A stretch of DNA of 64,000 nucleotides from NCBI RefSeq assembly GCF_002224645.1, contig NZ_CP022121.1, positions 2,882,501-2,946,500 on the forward strand, written 5' to 3'. Position 1 is the first letter of the stretch. Each line of letters begins with the position of its first letter. The notes below the pieces were generated by a model. The model searched no databases. It was given only the letters and a program-made list of their open reading frames with translations, and had not been told where the DNA came from. Both the position numbers and the translations under genes were made by a program. Of the stretch, positions 12,908-22,936 are shown in pieces. The DNA is from Dehalobacterium formicoaceticum. Lineage in GTDB: Bacteria; Bacillota; Dehalobacteriia; Dehalobacteriales; Dehalobacteriaceae.

Positions 12908-13139
12908 TATAATTCCCCCCGTTTTTTATAATATTTAATGAAATAGGCATATCATTTTAATAGAATAATACTAATCGTCCTTCATATCAAATCCTTATAT
13001 CTTGTATCCTATTCTATCAAAAACAGGGGAAATTTTTATTATCAGATTGTTAATTCTTATGTCCGGTTTACCTTACACAATGTCTTATCAAAAAACAAAT
13101 AAAAAACAGGCTCTGTTATAAATGTGGGTCCAAAATAAT
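12908..13139. other. intergenic, no gene seen
   Basis: AT-rich upstream region of the aminotransferase. GGCTCTGTTATAAA at about 13109 resembles ends of some insertion sequences, but no partner end was found. Confidence 0.35.
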
Positions 13140-13610
13140 TCACCCATATAAAGCCCGGCAACCCGTGGTAACCCCCGGTTTCATCTCAGATTCAACAAAC
13201 TTTTCTTTTGTGACCTCAGATATGTATCCATAAACTGATCAGGACCATATAAATAAGTTATCATCTGATTGGATTAACTTGTTTACATTGATACTTTTAG
13301 GAACATTCATCCACAGATCTACACCATTGAATGTTCTGGTACGTAGCCTTAAATTTTTATTCCACCTGGCCATACCCATAAATTTGATTTCCTCTTGACC
13401 CTTAAACAAAAAGTAGCAAGATGATGACTCTTCAGCTAAACCCCCACCTTTCCATCATTCGGGGAGCATACTTGCATCAAAGTCCCTGCATATCGGCTCA
13501 TGGTCGTCTGCCTTATCCACCATAAGTCCATGGGATAATTGGATTTCAAACAGTTTTTCCCCTTGTGACAGGCTACTTAAGTCATTTAAGGAATTACAAG
13601 AATATGTCAC
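13140..13610 (-). pseudogene. degraded ORF of unknown family, two internal TGA codons
   Basis: A continuous 157-codon frame from GTG at 13610 to TGA at 13140 contains only two internal stops, both TGA (at about 13455 and 13239). The readable segments include LFEIQLSHGLMVDKADDHEP, then YFLFKGQEEIKFMGMARWNK and GVDLWMNVPKSINVNKL. I do not recognise the family. Frame length in this AT-rich context and the lack of TAA/TAG suggest a former gene with point mutations. It lies next to the hairpin cluster at 13613, within an accessory region. Confidence 0.45.
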
Positions 13611-13612
13611 GG

Positions 13613-13740
13613 TACCACCCGTTCAACGGGTGGCTTGATTTTAGCCCTATAAGGGCATAGTACCTGCTGCGCCTAAAGGCGCGGTTTCGCTAGCCTAGCC
13701 CTATTACCAGCTGCCACTAAAGGGGTTAATTTACCTTGTC
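13613..13740. repeat. cluster of short perfect hairpins
   Basis: Three adjacent perfect palindromes: ACCACCCGTTCAACGGGTGG (13614-13633), AGCCCTATAAGGGC (13643-13656) and GCGCCTAAAGGCGC (13669-13682), then GGTTTCGCTAGCC. Such hairpin strings are typical of the ends of IS200/IS605-type elements and their non-autonomous derivatives, but no transposase is present. The remainder to 13898 shows no gene. Confidence 0.5.
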
Positions 13741-13898
13741 TTCGATGATATCCGCTTCTCATCTCATCTAAGACAACAATTAAAGGGGGACATGGTACCT
13801 GTACCCGCGTCCCCTACTGAAGAGGTATTTTTGCATTACAGAAATTGAGATATTTAAATAGCCAAGCAAAATTGGGGATATGGTTAGCAAGCCCTAAT

Positions 13899-14249
13899 TC
13901 ATCCCTTTCTAATGGTTAAATTAATCACGTGTTGCTGATTTGAATTACGTATGTTATCTAGGTGTTCATGATACTCCTTATCTAACGTTTCGTATCTTGA
14001 AATTGCAATTAAAAACTTTCCCAATTCATACAATGCATTGTCTGTTCCAGCGATAGAAATATTAATTTTGCCATTCTTAACAAAATCATCTTTTGTTTCA
14101 TCAAAAATTTCATCTTCAGAAACATCAATTTTTAGTTCATCAGTAAATAACGGTTCTTTGACACCTCCGTTAAAAATACCTTTAAGTTCATCCTGTTTAC
14201 CAATAAAATAATTTAAATCTACTTCAATTGTTTCTGTAATTTTTTTCAT
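13899..14249 (-). CDS. putative immunity protein for the RHS toxin
   Basis: Small acidic protein of 116 residues without signal peptide or membrane segment. The C-terminal half (SIAGTDNALYELGKFLIAIS, then a His-rich EYHEHLDNI) resembles the general form of small immunity proteins found after polymorphic toxins, but I cannot assign a named family. It starts 22 bp after the toxin gene with GGAG 8 nt before ATG, which implies co-transcription. The role is inferred from position (toxin C-terminus, then a small cytosolic protein) rather than from a motif. Confidence 0.6.
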   Translation of the reverse strand: MKKITETIEVDLNYFIGKQDELKGIFNGGVKEPLFTDELKIDVSEDEIFDETKDDFVKNGKINISIAGTDNALYELGKFLIAISRYETLDKEYHEHLDNIRNSNQQHVINLTIRKG

Positions 14250-14271
14250 TTTTTTCGCTCCATGAAATATT

Positions 14272-17200
14272 TTATCTCATTTTATCTAAAAGATTAAAAG
14301 CCTTTTTTACCCATCTAATTATATCGGGATCATTTCCAATTGTTTTCGATAGATTTGTTAAATCATCAATTGAATTAACATAAATCTTTTGTGGTCCGCC
14401 TTTACCTTTAATTTGTATGTGAACATTACCAGTACTCTTACCTGTTGGCATCTCCATATCAACTCTAACTTTGTTACCCCTTATCTCCTTGTTACCCAAT
14501 GTTCGCGAATTTCCGCCAGTAAATCCATTATTATTAGCCATCCCAATTAACATTTTATTAAATGCTACATCAGAATTGTCTCCACCTTGCCCAGCTTTCC
14601 CACTAACACCTCCTAAAAATACGTCAAAAATCACAAATTCTGCAGTTTTGCTAGCACCTGTCTTAATTGGATGGTCAGCTGCGAATCTTATTTGGTCGGC
14701 CTCATATTCCATGGCAGTTTGAATTGCTACTTTTTCTGAATTAGTAATTATTCCCCTTTTATATGCTTTTTCAGCATCCCACCAAAAATCGCTATAAATT
14801 TTTATTGAATCTTGAACATCCTGGTGATATTTTCCGTCATCTGCCTTTTTAAAGCCTGTCGGATCACTATAATTAATAGGATCATTTTCACAATAGGTGT
14901 ACAGATTCAAACTCAATGGGTTTGTAATACTACCCTCGTAGGAATCCTCCGCTATAAACCGCCCAATACTCGGATCATAATACCTTGACCGGAGATAATA
15001 GTTCCCAGTCTCATCATCATAGTATTCCCCGGCATACCTTATCGGGTTTGATATTTGTTCAGTCTTATTCAGAATATTGCCCCATTCATCATAGGTATAA
15101 CTGTTTTTTATGTTACCGTTTTCATCTACTACTTGCACCACATCTCCGTGACCATTATATAAGTAATAGTAATATGTTCCATTTATCTTCCTTGCTAATG
15201 GCTGATGTCCCCATACATTTTGAGCTGTCACTTGGCCTGATGCATTGCCCTCGGCGATTACCCTTCCATTGTAATCACTGTAATATTGTACCGTTTCCGT
15301 TGGACCGGTCTTTTTACTTCGTATTCCCTCCGGTTTATACTCATAACTGTATGTCTTGGTCCCGGTAACAAAGGTGTCCTGCCTGTCAAATGGATCATAG
15401 GTAAATGTTCCCGTTATTTCATTTTCAAAGGGTAAATTTCCTGTTACAAACTCCCGATTCCCCCGGCTGTCATAACTATATTTGGTAAGACCATTGCTGT
15501 TCGTAATCTCTTCCAAGCGATTCAATTGATCATAATCATAGGTGACGGAGCTTCCGTTATTATTTGCCGTCACGATATTTCCATTATAATCATAGCTGTA
15601 ACTATAGCTGGAAATGACTGTGGTTCCTTTTTTATTTACGATTCCTGTTAATCTGTTAAGATCATCATAGGTAAAGTCAGTAGTTATCAAGGATCCGGGG
15701 TAAACTATTCTTTTAATCATGCCGTCGTTATAATACTGATAATCAAATACCTTGCCGTCAACGGTTACTTTATCCAGCCTGTTAAGGGTGTCATAATCAT
15801 AATCCGCCGCTAAAAGAAATGGGTCTGTGATCCGGGTGTTGCTCCCGTTATTGTCATATGCATATTGGGTAATGATATTGCCCGGCCGGCTTTCTTTTTT
15901 TAACCGTCCATTATCATAGTATTCATAGGATGTCGTTCCGCTGCTGTCAGTAACTGTTCTGATATTTGTAATATCATTGTAAGTATATACCATGCTTTCG
16001 CCGCTGCTGCTTTCACTTAAAATTCGGTTTCTGGAGTCATATGTATAAAAGGTTTCCCTGCCTGTTCGGTCAATTGCCTTTTCCAGGTTCCCCCCGTGAT
16101 CATAAATATAGTACTCCGTCTTTTGATTGGGGTCTGTTGCTGCAATCAGACGCCCTAATTCATCATAATATTTTCGGGCAAAAAATCCATCCGGATAAAT
16201 GATTTTTGTTATATTGTTTTGGTGATCGTATTCATATTTTGTAGATTCTCCCCGGGCATTTTTTACTTCCGTCATTCTGCCTAAGGAATCATAGAAATAT
16301 TCGGTTTGATTCAGATTTGGATCCTTAACATATTTTAAATTACCCATGTAGTCATAACTATAGTAATTATTCACCGCTATACTATTTAGCATTGATGTTT
16401 CCTGAGTTACATTCCCCAGCTTATCATGGTATTCAATTGTCAGATCCTGTTCCTCGTTAATAATTATTTTTTTTCGCTGAACATCATCATAAACAATTTC
16501 ACTATATGTAAGATCGGGGTTAATAATTTTAATGATCCGGTTAAAAATGTCATATTGATATTCATTTTTATTCCCTTTGCCGTCCTCCATCCAATCCCTT
16601 TGAAAGAATAGGTTATAATGATATTCATTTATGGTAACCCATGTCCCATTTTGCTTCTCCTGCTCTTTAATCAAATTACCAAGCCCATCATAGATATTCC
16701 TTTTTTGATAGCCATTTTCCATTGTCGCTGTAACAATATTAAGGACATCATCATAGACAAGAACCTGTTCTGTTGCATCAGGATTAATGATTGCAGTCAG
16801 CCTTCCAAGGTTATCATATTCATATTGAGTATGATTGTCTGCTCCATCCCAGTAATCCGATACTCTGCCTGTATTAAAATCATAATCATAATTTTCTTCA
16901 ATTGTTGCTTTATTTCCTTTATAATCTGTGGTTTCTACAGATATCCCGGTCAGGTATCCTTTATCATACGCCGGACTATAGGTATAATTCGTTATTATAT
17001 CTGTTCCGTCAGCTTTGGATGTCGTTTCTACAATAAGGTTCCCATTGTCATCATCGTAACCATAATCGGTTATGATTGACTCATCTGCACCATTTTGTAT
17101 TAGTATTTGCTTCTTTCGCTCCATATTACCGGTCTCATGGTCTATGGTAAACTCCGTTCTTTGTTCGGTTTCAGCGTCCATGAAGCTGGACATGCTGGTC

Positions 17201-19761
17201 ATGATATGAAATTTGTTGTCATAGGTATATTCAGTTTGATGTCTGTATGGATCGGTAACGGTTAAAAGATCCCCAAATGAGTTATAGTTCCAGCTGGTTT
17301 CAATTGTGTCTGAATTACCTGATTCATTTAATTTTTTTACTTTCTCTTTTGATAGCAATTGATTCGAGTCATATTCGTATATATATTCTCTAAGCAAGGT
17401 AGTACCATTTTTCTTGACTGTTTTTTTCGTTAACAAGTGTTTGCTGTTAAAGTAGTATTCTGTCTGGGTATTATTGGCATCTGTTTCCAGAACCCGGTAA
17501 GTGAAGGTATCCGGCAGCTCTTTCGGATCCGGATATGTCGGATAACCGCTATACTCCCCATTATAGCTGTAATTAATTGTGTTGTAAGCCAGACTGCTTT
17601 GTTTATCCTCACGTTTAATTACCCGATAATATTCGTAGGAACCCTCGTTGCCGAAATTACCTACTGCTTTTTCAAAGGTATATTCCGTTGATGCCGATGT
17701 GGGGTAAGTTACTTTCCCAAGGTTGGCATAAATATTCTGCTCACCCCTGTATGTTTTGCTGAAAAAGGTAAATTTACCTGTGTCATAGGTATAATCAAAG
17801 CTGGTCTCTCTGCCTTTTTGGTCTTTAATTTTTTTCAAAACATATTCACCTGACTTGTTAGGTACAGGATCTAAGATACATTCAATATAAGTATTATCAG
17901 GACAAGTTATTTTTATTGTCTTTCCCGGAGATGTTGATCGGGAATTAATGGTTACAACCCTGCCCAGAGTATCGGTAATTTTTGAGATAACAGGGTGATC
18001 GTTAATCGGGGAATGTTCAAATTTAATGGTATTGCCATAACGATCTTTAATGCCAAGATACCGGCCGTCTTTGGCAAAATATTCTCTGGCCCCATTTTTA
18101 TGTATTAAAACATAGTATGAATTCTTTTGTCCATTGGAAAAGTTGCCGTAATCCCTTTCAATTTTTATGTCCTCAAGATAATAATCTACCAGATTGTTTG
18201 ATGATCCTGGGGAAATATCTATCTCGTATACACTCCCATCGCCCAAATGCAAGTACTCCTTATCCCCATCATCTTCAATGGATGGAAATCCATAGGACCA
18301 CCCGGAACCCAAGTTATTGTTTAATTCTGCAAAAGTATCGGCTTCCGTATCATTATAATAATCCCACTCAACATCTGAGACAACCTGATATATATCTCCA
18401 TAGTAGTCTACAATAAGATCGGTACCATCAGACCAATAATCATAAACAATGTATGATTGATCTACCCAATTATTTAAGGCAGTTTCCGCTTGAGACAAGG
18501 TATCATATATTCCAATTAATTGGTATTCAATATCTGCCTGATTATAGTCCCCTGTTCCAATACCATCACGGTAATAATAACCTTCAGCGCCACCCCATAC
18601 CTCGTATTGATAAGAATAATCTATCTCAGCGCCGCATACAGGCTTATATAAACTTGATTGTGCTGAATCATACTGGAGAGTGATATTTAGGTCTAAGCCG
18701 TTTCTCCCCGGTAAATCAAGCAGGTTTACATCATATTGCAGTGTCCCGTTATTTGCAACGATTTTCTCTTCTTGATTTGCTTGAAAATGAAAGGGTGATG
18801 TAAAATATCGATCAAATTGGATTTCACTCCCGCTCATCATTGAAGCTGTCCCATCAGAGCTGTTCTGAATAAATTCGTAATAGAGAACCTTGTTTTTCAG
18901 ATCTTGGGGTTTAATTCCTTTTTCCTGTACGCCGTTTATAAGTTGCTCAAGATCCACGAAATAGTCATCGGCAAATTCTTTTAAGGTTTCAATATCCTCC
19001 GGCAGAAGTTCTTCATAGTTCTCTATATTCAAATCCTTCCGGGCTGTCCCATCTTTAATAATATCATTTACATCAAGTTCAAGGGCTTCTGCTGCAGCCA
19101 GCGCTTTTTTTATTTGATCCGTAGTATAGCCCTTCAAAAACAGGCCTTTGGCCTGTTCTGTTTTTATTTCATTACTTTTACTTGTACGAATTAAATGTTG
19201 AAATCTTCTCAATTCTTTGTTCAGTTCAACCAGATCATTGTTATTCAATAATAATTGAGCAGCTTCATCAATACTAAATTCAAATTCTTTTGTTATATTT
19301 GCAATTTTTAATGATTCCAACAGATTATAACCATCTTGCGCACAATTAGTCATTGTGCTGGGATCCACACCAAAAAAATCACAAATAATTTTCTTTTCTT
19401 CATCTGTTGCTTCACTAAAGCTTTTTAACCGCGATAATAATTGGAAAGCTGATAAAGAATCATTTGGTTGCTGTTGCTCTTCCTCATCTACTATTTTTGT
19501 TGGCTCCTCATCTTTTATTGGCTCTTCTTCAAACGGTTCAGCTTCTTTTTCCACATTGTCATCTGTTAGCTGATCGGTATCATCTGTAATATTCTCAATG
19601 ATATTTTCCTCGTCACTATGCACTGGTTCATTTACACTATTCTCTATTGTATCAACTGCATCTTCCATAGGAGTCATTCCAGAATTCTCTGCCAATGCCG
19701 GAACAATGCCGTATGATAAGAATACCAGCAATATTAATAAGCATAATAGATCTTTTCGCAT
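14272..19761 (-). CDS. RHS/YD-repeat polymorphic toxin
   Basis: Secreted 1829-residue protein. A Sec signal peptide (MRKDLLCLLILLVFLSYG, cleaved near ALA-ENS) is followed by an acidic Asp/Glu-rich linker (about 30-100), a helical region to about 310, then dozens of YD repeats of the GxxxxYxYDxxGRL kind to about 1560. The RHS core ends with YYYLYNGHGDVVQVVD, the GRFIAEDSYEG segment and NDPINYSDPTGF at about 1633, beyond which the sequence is variable in this family. The last 197 residues are the presumed toxin: an Ala-rich helix, a Gly/Asn-rich linker and GNKVRVDMEMPTGKSTGNVH, similar in style to BECR-fold RNase toxins. Gram-positive RHS proteins (WapA type) mediate contact-dependent inhibition. 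ATG with GAGG 9 nt upstream; followed by a putative immunity gene. Confidence 0.88.
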   Translation of the reverse strand: MRKDLLCLLILLVFLSYGIVPALAENSGMTPMEDAVDTIENSVNEPVHSDEENIIENITDDTDQLTDDNVEKEAEPFEEEPIKDEEPTKIVDEEEQQQPNDSLSAFQLLSRLKSFSEATDEEKKIICDFFGVDPSTMTNCAQDGYNLLESLKIANITKEFEFSIDEAAQLLLNNNDLVELNKELRRFQHLIRTSKSNEIKTEQAKGLFLKGYTTDQIKKALAAAEALELDVNDIIKDGTARKDLNIENYEELLPEDIETLKEFADDYFVDLEQLINGVQEKGIKPQDLKNKVLYYEFIQNSSDGTASMMSGSEIQFDRYFTSPFHFQANQEEKIVANNGTLQYDVNLLDLPGRNGLDLNITLQYDSAQSSLYKPVCGAEIDYSYQYEVWGGAEGYYYRDGIGTGDYNQADIEYQLIGIYDTLSQAETALNNWVDQSYIVYDYWSDGTDLIVDYYGDIYQVVSDVEWDYYNDTEADTFAELNNNLGSGWSYGFPSIEDDGDKEYLHLGDGSVYEIDISPGSSNNLVDYYLEDIKIERDYGNFSNGQKNSYYVLIHKNGAREYFAKDGRYLGIKDRYGNTIKFEHSPINDHPVISKITDTLGRVVTINSRSTSPGKTIKITCPDNTYIECILDPVPNKSGEYVLKKIKDQKGRETSFDYTYDTGKFTFFSKTYRGEQNIYANLGKVTYPTSASTEYTFEKAVGNFGNEGSYEYYRVIKREDKQSSLAYNTINYSYNGEYSGYPTYPDPKELPDTFTYRVLETDANNTQTEYYFNSKHLLTKKTVKKNGTTLLREYIYEYDSNQLLSKEKVKKLNESGNSDTIETSWNYNSFGDLLTVTDPYRHQTEYTYDNKFHIMTSMSSFMDAETEQRTEFTIDHETGNMERKKQILIQNGADESIITDYGYDDDNGNLIVETTSKADGTDIITNYTYSPAYDKGYLTGISVETTDYKGNKATIEENYDYDFNTGRVSDYWDGADNHTQYEYDNLGRLTAIINPDATEQVLVYDDVLNIVTATMENGYQKRNIYDGLGNLIKEQEKQNGTWVTINEYHYNLFFQRDWMEDGKGNKNEYQYDIFNRIIKIINPDLTYSEIVYDDVQRKKIIINEEQDLTIEYHDKLGNVTQETSMLNSIAVNNYYSYDYMGNLKYVKDPNLNQTEYFYDSLGRMTEVKNARGESTKYEYDHQNNITKIIYPDGFFARKYYDELGRLIAATDPNQKTEYYIYDHGGNLEKAIDRTGRETFYTYDSRNRILSESSSGESMVYTYNDITNIRTVTDSSGTTSYEYYDNGRLKKESRPGNIITQYAYDNNGSNTRITDPFLLAADYDYDTLNRLDKVTVDGKVFDYQYYNDGMIKRIVYPGSLITTDFTYDDLNRLTGIVNKKGTTVISSYSYSYDYNGNIVTANNNGSSVTYDYDQLNRLEEITNSNGLTKYSYDSRGNREFVTGNLPFENEITGTFTYDPFDRQDTFVTGTKTYSYEYKPEGIRSKKTGPTETVQYYSDYNGRVIAEGNASGQVTAQNVWGHQPLARKINGTYYYYLYNGHGDVVQVVDENGNIKNSYTYDEWGNILNKTEQISNPIRYAGEYYDDETGNYYLRSRYYDPSIGRFIAEDSYEGSITNPLSLNLYTYCENDPINYSDPTGFKKADDGKYHQDVQDSIKIYSDFWWDAEKAYKRGIITNSEKVAIQTAMEYEADQIRFAADHPIKTGASKTAEFVIFDVFLGGVSGKAGQGGDNSDVAFNKMLIGMANNNGFTGGNSRTLGNKEIRGNKVRVDMEMPTGKSTGNVHIQIKGKGGPQKIYVNSIDDLTNLSKTIGNDPDIIRWVKKAFNLLDKMR

Positions 19762-19815: not shown

Positions 19816-22417
19816 TTAATTCATCCTTTGTTTTGATATCAAATTACCTTCATCATCATACAGATAGTTCCATATAACCTGACCATTACGAATAATTGAA
19901 GTCAGACGGTTATTAGCATCATACTGATAAGTTACACCGCCCATCTTTACCTGTACTGGCAATAGCCGGTTATATATCGTCCCGTCACCAAGCTGCCCAT
20001 AGTAGTTATGGCCCCATCCCCAAATAGTTCCATCGCTTTTTAGACCAAGAGAATGACCATATCCCGCTGATATCGCCACTAAATTACTTAGATTCATTAC
20101 TTCTACCGGAGGATTTCTTGGCGATGTGGTTCAGTCTCCAATTTGACCGTAATAATTCATTCCCCAAGCGTAAGCTTTACCATTGTCTTTTAACGCTAAA
20201 TTATGTTCTAACCCCCCGGATATTGCGGTCATGTCACTTAATGTAGGTACCTCTACGGGTACTGCTCCATCCCCTGACCAGCCCCAAAACCAAACCGATC
20301 CATCAGATGTGACAGACAGGGAATGACCATCATCGGCAGCAACCCCCACTACTCCGGTTAAACCTTCTATCTGTACCGGTGAATATCTGTTTGTTGTCGA
20401 ATTGTCGCCAAGCTGTCCTTCATTATTTTTTCCCCAAGACCAGATCGTTCCATCGCTTTTTAATGCTAAATTCCTTCCGCAATTGCTATAGCATTGGTTA
20501 GTCCTGATACTTGAACCGGAGTAAAATTGCAATCACATTGGTCAGTCCTGATACTTGAACCGGGGTATTTCTACTTGTTATTGTCCCATCGCCAAGCTGT
20601 CCGTAGCTATTGAATCCCCATGTCCATACTGTGCCATCACTCTTTAATGCTATGCTATGATGCAAACAAGCATAAACTGCAGTTATATTATTTAAACCTG
20701 AGACCTGGACAGGTACTGTCTTATTTTGCTTTGTTCCATCCCCAAGTTGACCATATTCATTACCGCCCCATGACCATACAATACCATCTTGTAATAAAAG
20801 GCTATGATTCATCCCTGCAGATATTTGTTTAGATTCATATCCCACAGTCGATTCAGTGAAAATCTGAACTTCTGGTTCTGTTGAATATGTCTCAGTAGTA
20901 TTTATGATACCGGTGCTCCCGTTTATGTCAATCACTTCATCATTAACAATACCTTTCACCGCATTTTCAACATTTATCTTACTGCTATTATAAGTTTTTC
21001 CTATTAGTGAAGACATCTTGTCAGAGAAATTAAGGATTTTACTTCTGATTTCATCTTTACTTAATTGTGAATTTTGTCCCAATAATAGTGCTATTTCTCC
21101 AGAAACAAAAGCTGCTGCCATTGAAGTTCCATCTTTAAAGCCCACATCGTTCCCCGGGATCGTACTTATAATGTTTTCTCCGGGAGCTGCAATATCCACA
21201 GAGGCTTGTCCATAATTTGAAAAAGCAGATAAAAACCCTTCATCGTTTATCGAAGCAACTGTTATTATATTATCTAAATCAAAGGAAGCAGGAAAAACTG
21301 ATTGTTTATCAATATCCCAACCATTATTGCCCGCCGCTGCTACAAAAATTAAGTTTGATTCTCTCATTACCCCTTTCAAGGCATTATTTTCGAAAGCAGA
21401 ACTCCAACTACAATTGGCAATCTGAGCTCCCATTTGAGAGGCATATTCTATTGCGTCAATAATGTCACTGGTGTAAGCCTCACCATCTGCAAAAACTTTG
21501 AGTGGCATAATCTTTGCCCCGGGAGAGATACCGGCAATTTCAGTTTCATTATCCTTCTCTGACCCAATTATTCCTGCAATATGTGTTCCGTGCCATTCAT
21601 TTTTACTCACATTCTGAACTTTATTGGAATTATCAGTAAAATTCCAGCCATTAACATCGTCAACATACCCATTGCCATCATCATCTATACCGTTACCTGC
21701 TATTTCCCCTTTATTTTTCCAAATATTATTTTCTAGGTCATAATGTGAAACATCAATACCGGTATCAAGCAGAGCAACAACTGCTCCCTGTCCTGTGCTT
21801 TCCCCCCAGGCAGGAACTACGTTAGCATCAAAACCATGTAATTTATCTCCCTGTAAAACAGGTTTCGCTTCGTTATTTTTAAGATCATTATTTTCTTCGT
21901 CAATTTCCTGATTTACAGGCTCTGTTTCCATATATATTGGATATTGGTTAAATAATCCCCATTGTTCCCCAAAATACATATCCTCGGAAGCCAAGCTCAA
22001 TTTATAATCGGGTTGAATAAACTCTATCTCTTCGTTAAGGGATATCTTATCTATGACCTTTTTAGGGTTAAGTTTCTTGGTGGTATATATCACTTCGATA
22101 TTTTTCTTTTTTGTTTTTTTGTAACTTTTAACCATGTCTTTCAGACTTCCGGATATTTTATCTTTACCTTGATCGTTGTTATTGTCTTTAAACTTAACAA
22201 TGAAGCGGTTAGTCCAAAATGCTTCGGGTACTTCCTCAGCTTGAATGTTCATTTGAAGATCTCGTAACTTCTCCACGTCATTTAATAATTTTTCCTGCTC
22301 AGCTGTTTTGTTGTCTTCAGTATTCAATTGTTCAACTGCAAATACAGAAATACTTGACATAATCAGGCTAAAAAGCACAATAATTATAAGAAAGTTTTTG
22401 CAAATACTATTTTTCAC
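19816..22417 (-). pseudogene. subtilase-RCC1-YD surface protein, broken by several lesions
   Basis: About 870-residue secreted protein split into three reading pieces. The first has a signal peptide, a pro-region, and a complete S8 protease domain with Asp218 (LLDTGID), His276 (WHGTHIAG), Asn364 (AAGNN) and Ser432 (GTSMAAAF). RCC1 beta-propeller repeats (ALKSDGTVWTWG...YGQLGDGT) begin near residue 530. Lesion one: near 20536 two near-identical 36-base stretches sit 44 bp apart, so a repeat was deleted and the frame lost. Lesion two: one base missing near 20484. Lesion three: in-frame TGA at 20131 where repeats predict Gly. The last piece ends in two YD repeats like the downstream RHS protein. 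The start is GTG at 22417 with AAGGAG 9 nt upstream; the TTG 18 nt earlier overlaps it. Confidence 0.85.
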
Positions 22418-22936
22418 CTTGGTCCTCTCCTTCAATTCTCGATTATATCTGATTGTTACGCTTTCAATCTAACGAATAATGACTAGGGTACCCACCCCTC
22501 TGTGTTACAATAGTTGTCAGGGAGCGAAAACAATCTTTTAAAATTTGAGGTAATTGATTATCATTAACTACTATTCATATTTTCTCTTTCTCCATCCACC
22601 GCAATTATCTTTTTAGTACTTTTTTAAGCATGTACACATATTTTTCCATCATCATGGATCCGCCATTCTTATTAATTATAAAAAACGCAATTTGTACAAT
22701 ATTTGACATTCGGCATTTACCATTGATTCCCTTTTATGAATTTACGACATATTTTGACAAATAATGATTATAATCGACATTTTCAACCAAGAGAACGTTT
22801 CCTTGATTTGCCCCTCTGATTTATGCATTATGCGCCATGCGCGCGATGCAAACAAGAAAAACCGGGCTAAAGTCCCAATGTAATAATGTTAAGAATAAGA
22901 CAGGGTAAATACTATATTCAAAATTTATCAGAAACA
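22418..22936. other. intergenic, no gene seen
   Basis: Upstream region of the subtilase-RCC1 gene and tail of the nuo operon. AT-rich, with CCGGGCTAAAGTCCC near 22861 as a possible short repeat. A minus-strand frame of 69 codons at 22821-23030 covers the terminators and is not considered real. Confidence 0.5.

What the first reader, a model, noticed from the sequence alone, without database searches (positions are those of the whole stretch)
13899..19761. RHS toxin with an unassigned 197-residue C-terminus and a new candidate immunity gene
The toxin region after DPTGF has an Ala-rich helix, a Gly/Asn linker and a compact basic domain with RVDMEMPTGKSTGNVH. The style resembles BECR-type RNases, but no named Ntox family is clear to me. 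The following 116-residue acidic protein has no obvious family. Together they could be a new toxin-immunity pair.
Basis: partly seen in the sequence, partly recalled or inferred. Interest (0 to 1): 0.65.

Follow-up and report, generated by a model that had tools for sequence, protein, structure and literature searches.

The report
RHS toxin with Imm32-type immunity gene
A bacterium carries a secreted weapon protein whose tip looks like an unnamed small toxin, next to a gene that probably protects the bacterium from it; the arrangement is a familiar one, but the toxin tip itself has no name yet.

Summary
An 1829-aa RHS protein (14272-19761, minus strand) ends in a 192-residue tip after DPTGF, and a 116-aa acidic gene follows 22 bp downstream. 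Chassis homology to RHS paralogues elsewhere in the genome stops at DPTGF, so the tip is a swapped module. The tip matches no Pfam, NCBIfam or PDB sequence. A scan of genome contigs found one relative, in Metabacillus mangrovi (59% over 82 residues). Its next gene is a homologue (45%) of the 116-aa protein, so the pair is conserved in another genus.

Two close homologues pass Pfam's Imm32 cut-off; the window copy is sub-threshold (E 7e-4). One homologue lies without any detectable tip (orphan immunity). A BECR fold is not supported: the modelled 91-residue core (pLDDT 82) is four strands then a C-terminal helix, with no significant structural match.

Best reading: a new tip family of an ordinary polymorphic toxin, probably a metal-independent RNase, neutralised by an Imm32 protein. 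The pairing is well supported; the RNase activity is inferred from Imm32's published partners and the tip's basic, single-histidine make-up. New member of a known kind; modest interest.

The parts
14272..19761 (-). RHS polymorphic toxin gene, 1829 aa
   Evidence: ORF; RHS_repeat and Rhs_assc_core; signal-peptide-like first 24 residues read by eye
14851..19761 (-). chassis, residues 1-1637, ending in DPTGF
   Evidence: homology to paralogues L075 and L076 of the same genome ends at residue 1637
14548..14850 (-). first part of the tip, residues 1638-1738, acidic, 12% Ala
   Evidence: composition; not shared by the Metabacillus relative
14275..14547 (-). toxin core, residues 1739-1829, pI 10.1, modelled as four strands and a C-terminal helix
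   Evidence: relative in Metabacillus mangrovi L013; AlphaFold2 pLDDT 81.9, pTM 0.74
14419..14466 (-). motif RVDMEMPTGKSTGNVH, residues 1766-1781
   Evidence: 13 of 16 letters the same in L013
14258..14261 (-). GGAG, ribosome-binding-site-like, 8 nt before the ATG of the immunity gene
   Evidence: read from sequence
13899..14249 (-). immunity gene, 116 aa, Imm32-related
   Evidence: Imm32 E 7e-4, 19.9 bits, below the cut-off of 27; homologues L013 and L053 over the cut-off; alignment A3

Best explanation
A secreted RHS polymorphic toxin with its cognate immunity gene. The RHS chassis carries a swapped C-terminal tip; after release at or near the DPTGF boundary the basic core of about 90 residues enters a competing cell and acts as a toxin, most likely as a metal-independent RNase using the polar face of its sheet (R1766, D1768, E1770; H1781, Q1783, K1785; K1792, Y1794). 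The acidic Imm32-type 116-aa protein binds and blocks the core in the producer and its kin. Shown: chassis, module boundary, linkage of tip and immunity gene in two genera, Imm32 homology. Inferred: export, cleavage, target cell, enzymatic activity, binding.
For: RHS domains; homology to two paralogues stops at residue 1637; tip and small gene recur adjacent in Metabacillus; Imm32 homology; basic core and acidic partner, pI 10.1 and 4.8; 22-bp gap with a ribosome-binding-site-like GGAG in the window, 6-bp gap in L013; Imm32 partners in Zhang et al. 2012 are Ntox12, Ntox37 and Ntox7, predicted RNases there; a sheet with one polar face and one conserved histidine.
Against: Only two sequences of the tip, so conserved residues say little: 10 of 12 polar against 8 of 10 inward strand positions are identical. 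No significant structural match. The window Imm32 score is below the cut-off, and the window gene did not show in the Imm32 genome search at E<=0.01. The Metabacillus tip is out of frame with the RHS core before it. One immunity homologue has no tip nearby.
Confidence: 0.55

Rival explanations
1. Same toxin-immunity module, but the core is not a metal-independent RNase: it is a DNase, a metal-dependent nuclease or another enzyme, with D1768, E1770 and H1781 as a metal or other active site.
For: D, E and H on neighbouring strands in the model; Imm32 is attached to several unrelated toxins in print, so its presence does not fix the activity.
Against: All three published Imm32 partners are predicted RNases; no match to a metal-dependent nuclease family.
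Confidence: 0.35
2. The tip is a very divergent member of Ntox12, Ntox37 or Ntox7, not a family of its own.
For: It shares the immunity family with them. Imm32-linked tips found here (L014, L052, L071) show a DxD and HxNFE pattern that may be Ntox12 (my inference) and, like the window tip, have strands rich in R, D and H.
Against: Profile comparison of the window tip with those tips gives probability 0.8% over 11 columns; no Pfam or NCBIfam hit; the core is modelled with a C-terminal helix, while Ntox12 and Ntox37 are called all-beta.
Confidence: 0.2
3. A decayed locus: the RHS gene and its partner are remnants that no longer work.
For: Other RHS-type genes of this genome are broken (L075 in several frames; the S8/RCC1 gene just upstream lies in three ORFs), and the Metabacillus copy is out of frame.
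Against: The 1829-aa frame is intact from the leader to the tip, and the immunity gene is intact with a ribosome-binding-site-like sequence.
Confidence: 0.07

Closest known systems
RHS/YD-repeat polymorphic toxins with a signal peptide (the Sec-dependent class of Zhang et al. 2012, PMC3482391; WapA of Bacillus is the example I recall)
   Same: Leader, RHS repeats, Rhs-associated core, DPxG boundary, variable tip, immunity gene behind it
   Different: The tip is of no family in the libraries searched; the gene sits behind a broken S8 protease/RCC1-repeat gene
Imm32 (PF15566)
   Same: Two close homologues score over the curated cut-off, the window protein below it; the HxH of the C-terminal half is shared
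   Different: About 60 N-terminal residues outside the Pfam model; its toxin is not one of the published partners as far as tested
Ntox12, Ntox37, Ntox7 (published Imm32 partners)
   Same: Same immunity family; small domains with conserved charged residues
   Different: No sequence match found; strand-strand-strand-strand-helix model
PUR repeat (PURA) fold
   Same: Similar order of elements; VIA Z 6.6 to 8cht_B, 3.3 A over 75 residues
   Different: Weak (Foldseek E 0.14 for 8chv_B), 11% identity; may be only a common arrangement

Membership tests
RHS polymorphic toxin | RHS repeats and Rhs-associated core before the tip | tested here: met
RHS polymorphic toxin | Chassis shared with paralogues, tip different, boundary at DPxG | tested here: met
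   L075 and L076 homology ends at residue 1637
RHS polymorphic toxin | Immunity gene directly downstream, linked to the tip | tested here: met
   same pair in L013
RHS polymorphic toxin | Export and toxicity to other cells | not testable with these tools
   leader read by eye only
Imm32 | Score over the curated Pfam cut-off of 27 bits | tested here: inconclusive
   window 19.9 bits; homologues at 45% and 39% identity score 27.3 and 37.5 bits
Imm32 | Gene beside a polymorphic toxin tip | tested here: met
   window and L013; not in L053
BECR RNase fold | Helix followed by a four-stranded sheet | tested here: inconclusive
   core modelled as four strands then helix, the first part of the tip not modelled; absence from lists proves nothing
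Ntox12 / Ntox37 / Ntox7 | Sequence match to the family | tested here: inconclusive
   no Pfam or NCBIfam hit up to E 10, but I did not check that each has a model there; the published alignments could not be opened; no match to the Imm32-linked tips that may be Ntox12
Metal-independent RNase | RNA cleavage without metal | not testable with these tools
   inference only

The most novel reading that the evidence does not exclude
The 91-residue core founds a toxin-domain family of its own, with a strand x4 - helix fold not used by described RNase toxins, and is a fourth type of partner for Imm32, so that one immunity family neutralises structurally unrelated toxins.
Probability: 0.3. Interest if true: 0.5.

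Novelty: new member of a known kind. Interest (0 to 1): 0.32.

Why it matters
It adds an unnamed toxin tip to the catalogue of RHS weapons and ties it to Imm32, a family with almost no literature in the library searched. If the tip is a fold of its own, it gives a small, testable case of one immunity family facing unrelated toxins. Otherwise it is one more swap of tip and immunity gene on a shared RHS chassis.

Tried and rejected
Tip relatives beyond Metabacillus: whole tip in 398 genomes of the window's phylum (11 of 398 at E<=0.1, one of them the window genome), core profile in 398 genomes of the phylum (51 of 398 at E<=10, own included) and in 397 genomes of the Metabacillus order (1 of 397, Metabacillus itself). 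I looked at 8 of the 10 foreign matches (L005 and L012, with stops inside, not read; the frames printed there for minus-strand matches are wrong, the tblastn alignments below them are right, and L007 and L010 gave no alignment). Of the 29 foreign loci delivered, 26 went into a script and 25 were printed (L026 dropped for a stop, L048, L050, L051 not read). I judged all to be chance: short pieces, mostly deep inside other proteins. Matches without a locus were not examined.

Plasmids and phages by tblastn with tips and immunity proteins: nothing below E 0.7; a Mesobacillus plasmid match (E 7) was opened and no RHS gene is annotated there. Viral contigs: no relative. PDB by sequence: the match of the small protein to PLL2 lectin (E 7.9e-5) rests on a 20-residue repeated stretch with no stretch passing on its own, and the hyaluronidase match of the tip (E 0.009) is to a phage fibre protein; both rejected. 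NCBIfam blaSPI (E 0.05) and YfiA (E 0.008 on the Metabacillus tip) rejected as far below their cut-offs. PHROGs: only weak unnamed families, best E 0.012. AlphaFold2 of the immunity protein failed (pLDDT 42), so no fold is taken from it. Joining the window tip with the tips of L014/L052/L071 in one family failed. No BECR nuclease that I recognise is listed in the structure searches; that shows no absence.

Full report
What is there. The window (2882501-2946500 of a 3.77-Mb single-contig genome) holds on the minus strand an 1829-aa ORF, 14272-19761, and 22 bp downstream a 116-aa ORF, 13899-14249. The large protein has twelve RHS-repeat stretches (Pfam, E 1.5e-48) and the Rhs-associated core domain at residues 1557-1636 (NCBIfam TIGR03696). 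Its first 24 residues look like a Sec signal peptide (read by eye).

Module boundary. The genome has other RHS loci: 32 RHS-repeat matches in all, in the window and at about 386, 790, 797-804, 1231 and 1849 kb. I fetched the four outside regions. L075 aligns with the window protein at 61% over residues 1376-1637, and the first RHS gene of L076 at 33% over 632-1637; both alignments stop at residue 1637 and different tips follow. The second RHS gene of L076 and that of L077 align up to residue 1629, L078 up to 1636. The tip itself has no relative in those regions (best E 0.16). This is the usual chassis-and-tip build of polymorphic toxins.

The tip. It has two parts: residues 1638-1738, pI 5.3 and 12% Ala, and residues 1739-1829, pI 10.1 and 25% Gly+Asn. 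Pfam, NCBIfam and PDB sequences do not match it. A scan of the genome-contig collection gave 39 pattern matches, one of them a relative: Metabacillus mangrovi L013, 59% over 82 residues; the aligned part covers residues 1742-1829. In L013 the tip is in another frame than the RHS core before it, so that copy is an orphan or broken cassette. Further searches found no other tip (counts under Tried and rejected).

The small gene. Right behind the L013 tip lies a 118-aa ORF that is 45% identical to the window's 116-aa protein. So tip and small gene go together in two genera. The window protein scores 19.9 bits against Imm32 (PF15566; E 7e-4, below the curated cut-off of 27); the L013 protein scores 27.3 bits and a third homologue, L053, 37.5 bits, both over the cut-off. 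H94 and H96 are the same in all three. I conclude that the protein belongs to the wider Imm32 family, with about 60 N-terminal residues outside the Pfam model.

Imm32 elsewhere. In 199 genomes of the window's phylum 2 had an Imm32 match at E<=0.01, one over the cut-off; the window gene itself was not among them at that limit. In 299 genomes of the Metabacillus order 7 had one, 5 over the cut-off. Of those five, read within about 1.5 kb: L056 is the Metabacillus pair; L052 follows a tip of another type; L055 follows a 72-aa ORF of unknown kind; L053 and L054 show no tip upstream. L053 is the close homologue, 39% identical to the window protein; in 16 kb around it no copy of the tip core was found. 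It is an orphan immunity gene, of the sort Zhang et al. describe for polyimmunity loci (passages read), although its small neighbours that I scanned match no Pfam family. A profile of the three immunity proteins found only the window genome among 299 genomes of its phylum.

Structure. The core, modelled from two sequences, is confident for so thin an alignment (pLDDT 81.9, pTM 0.74): strands 14-22, 25-32, 41-48, 51-57, then helices up to residue 90. Foldseek against PDB and viral models gives no match with E below 0.001; VIA-align gives Z 6.6 to a human PURA domain, 3.3 A over 75 residues, which the tool's own note treats as possibly just a common arrangement. PUR, Whirly and ribosomal-protein rows are nucleic-acid binders, a hint at most. 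The order of elements is not that of BECR nucleases as I recall it (helix before sheet), but the tip's first part was not modelled, so BECR stays open. The immunity model failed (pLDDT 42).

Mechanism. Along strands 2, 3 and 4 polar residues alternate with hydrophobic ones: R1766, D1768, E1770; H1781, Q1783, K1785; K1792, Y1794. All eight are identical in the relative, but 10 of 12 polar positions against 8 of 10 inward ones is no contrast. The toxins that Zhang et al. 2012 (PMC3482391; table passages read) list with Imm32 are Ntox12, Ntox37 and Ntox7; Ntox7 is a predicted BECR RNase, and Ntox12 and Ntox37 stand after the heading 'Predicted metal-independent RNase toxins' (I did not read every line between the heading and these rows). 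From that, the basic charge and the single histidine of the core I commit to a metal-independent RNase, at little better than even odds; the toxin-immunity pairing itself I hold at about 0.9.

Known or new. The kind is known. The tip is new to the libraries searched. Imm32-linked tips found here beside genes over the cut-off (L014; L052) and in a Streptomyces plasmid beside an Imm32-like gene that I aligned but did not scan (L071) form another family (alignment of six tips), which does not align with the window tip (hhalign probability 0.8%). Literature: a search for Imm32, PF15566, Ntox12 and 'immunity protein 32' listed 9 papers; PMC3482391 bears on it, PMC12429752 only names the protein in a table (passage read), and the other seven are by their titles on other subjects. 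A search on RHS toxins, immunity proteins and 'Imm32 family' showed 15 of 58 papers, none with the last term. So I found no description of this tip in print, within those searches.

Base composition. Window 42.1% GC; RHS chassis 36-38%, core 33.3%, immunity gene 28.4%. Core and immunity gene are the AT-rich end, in line with a transferred cassette, though 270-base blocks within the RHS gene range from 30 to 42%.

Noticed in passing
window 19816-22435, minus strand: Directly upstream of the RHS gene lies a subtilase (S8) - RCC1-repeat gene in three ORFs (645, 133 and 93 aa), ending in a YD/RHS repeat.
   Followed up: partly
L076 2701-5274 and L077 3-1433, own genome: Two more RCC1-repeat ORFs ending in a YD-type repeat stand just before RHS genes with a signal-like leader, so protease/RCC1 plus RHS may be a repeated unit in this genome.
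   Followed up: no
L076 5808-12245: A second RHS gene (1898-aa open frame) with another tip and a 246-aa gene behind it that matches no Pfam family: a further candidate pair.
   Followed up: no
L014, L052, L071: A family of Imm32-linked tips with DxD, HMNFE and HIYL patterns and no Pfam hit for L014; it may be Ntox12 (inference).
   Followed up: partly
window 12908-13898: About 1 kb behind the immunity gene without an ORF of 60 aa or more on either strand and without an Rfam match.
   Followed up: no
L077 5826-6879: IS3-like transposase frames lie inside an RHS gene of the same genome (read by eye).
   Followed up: no
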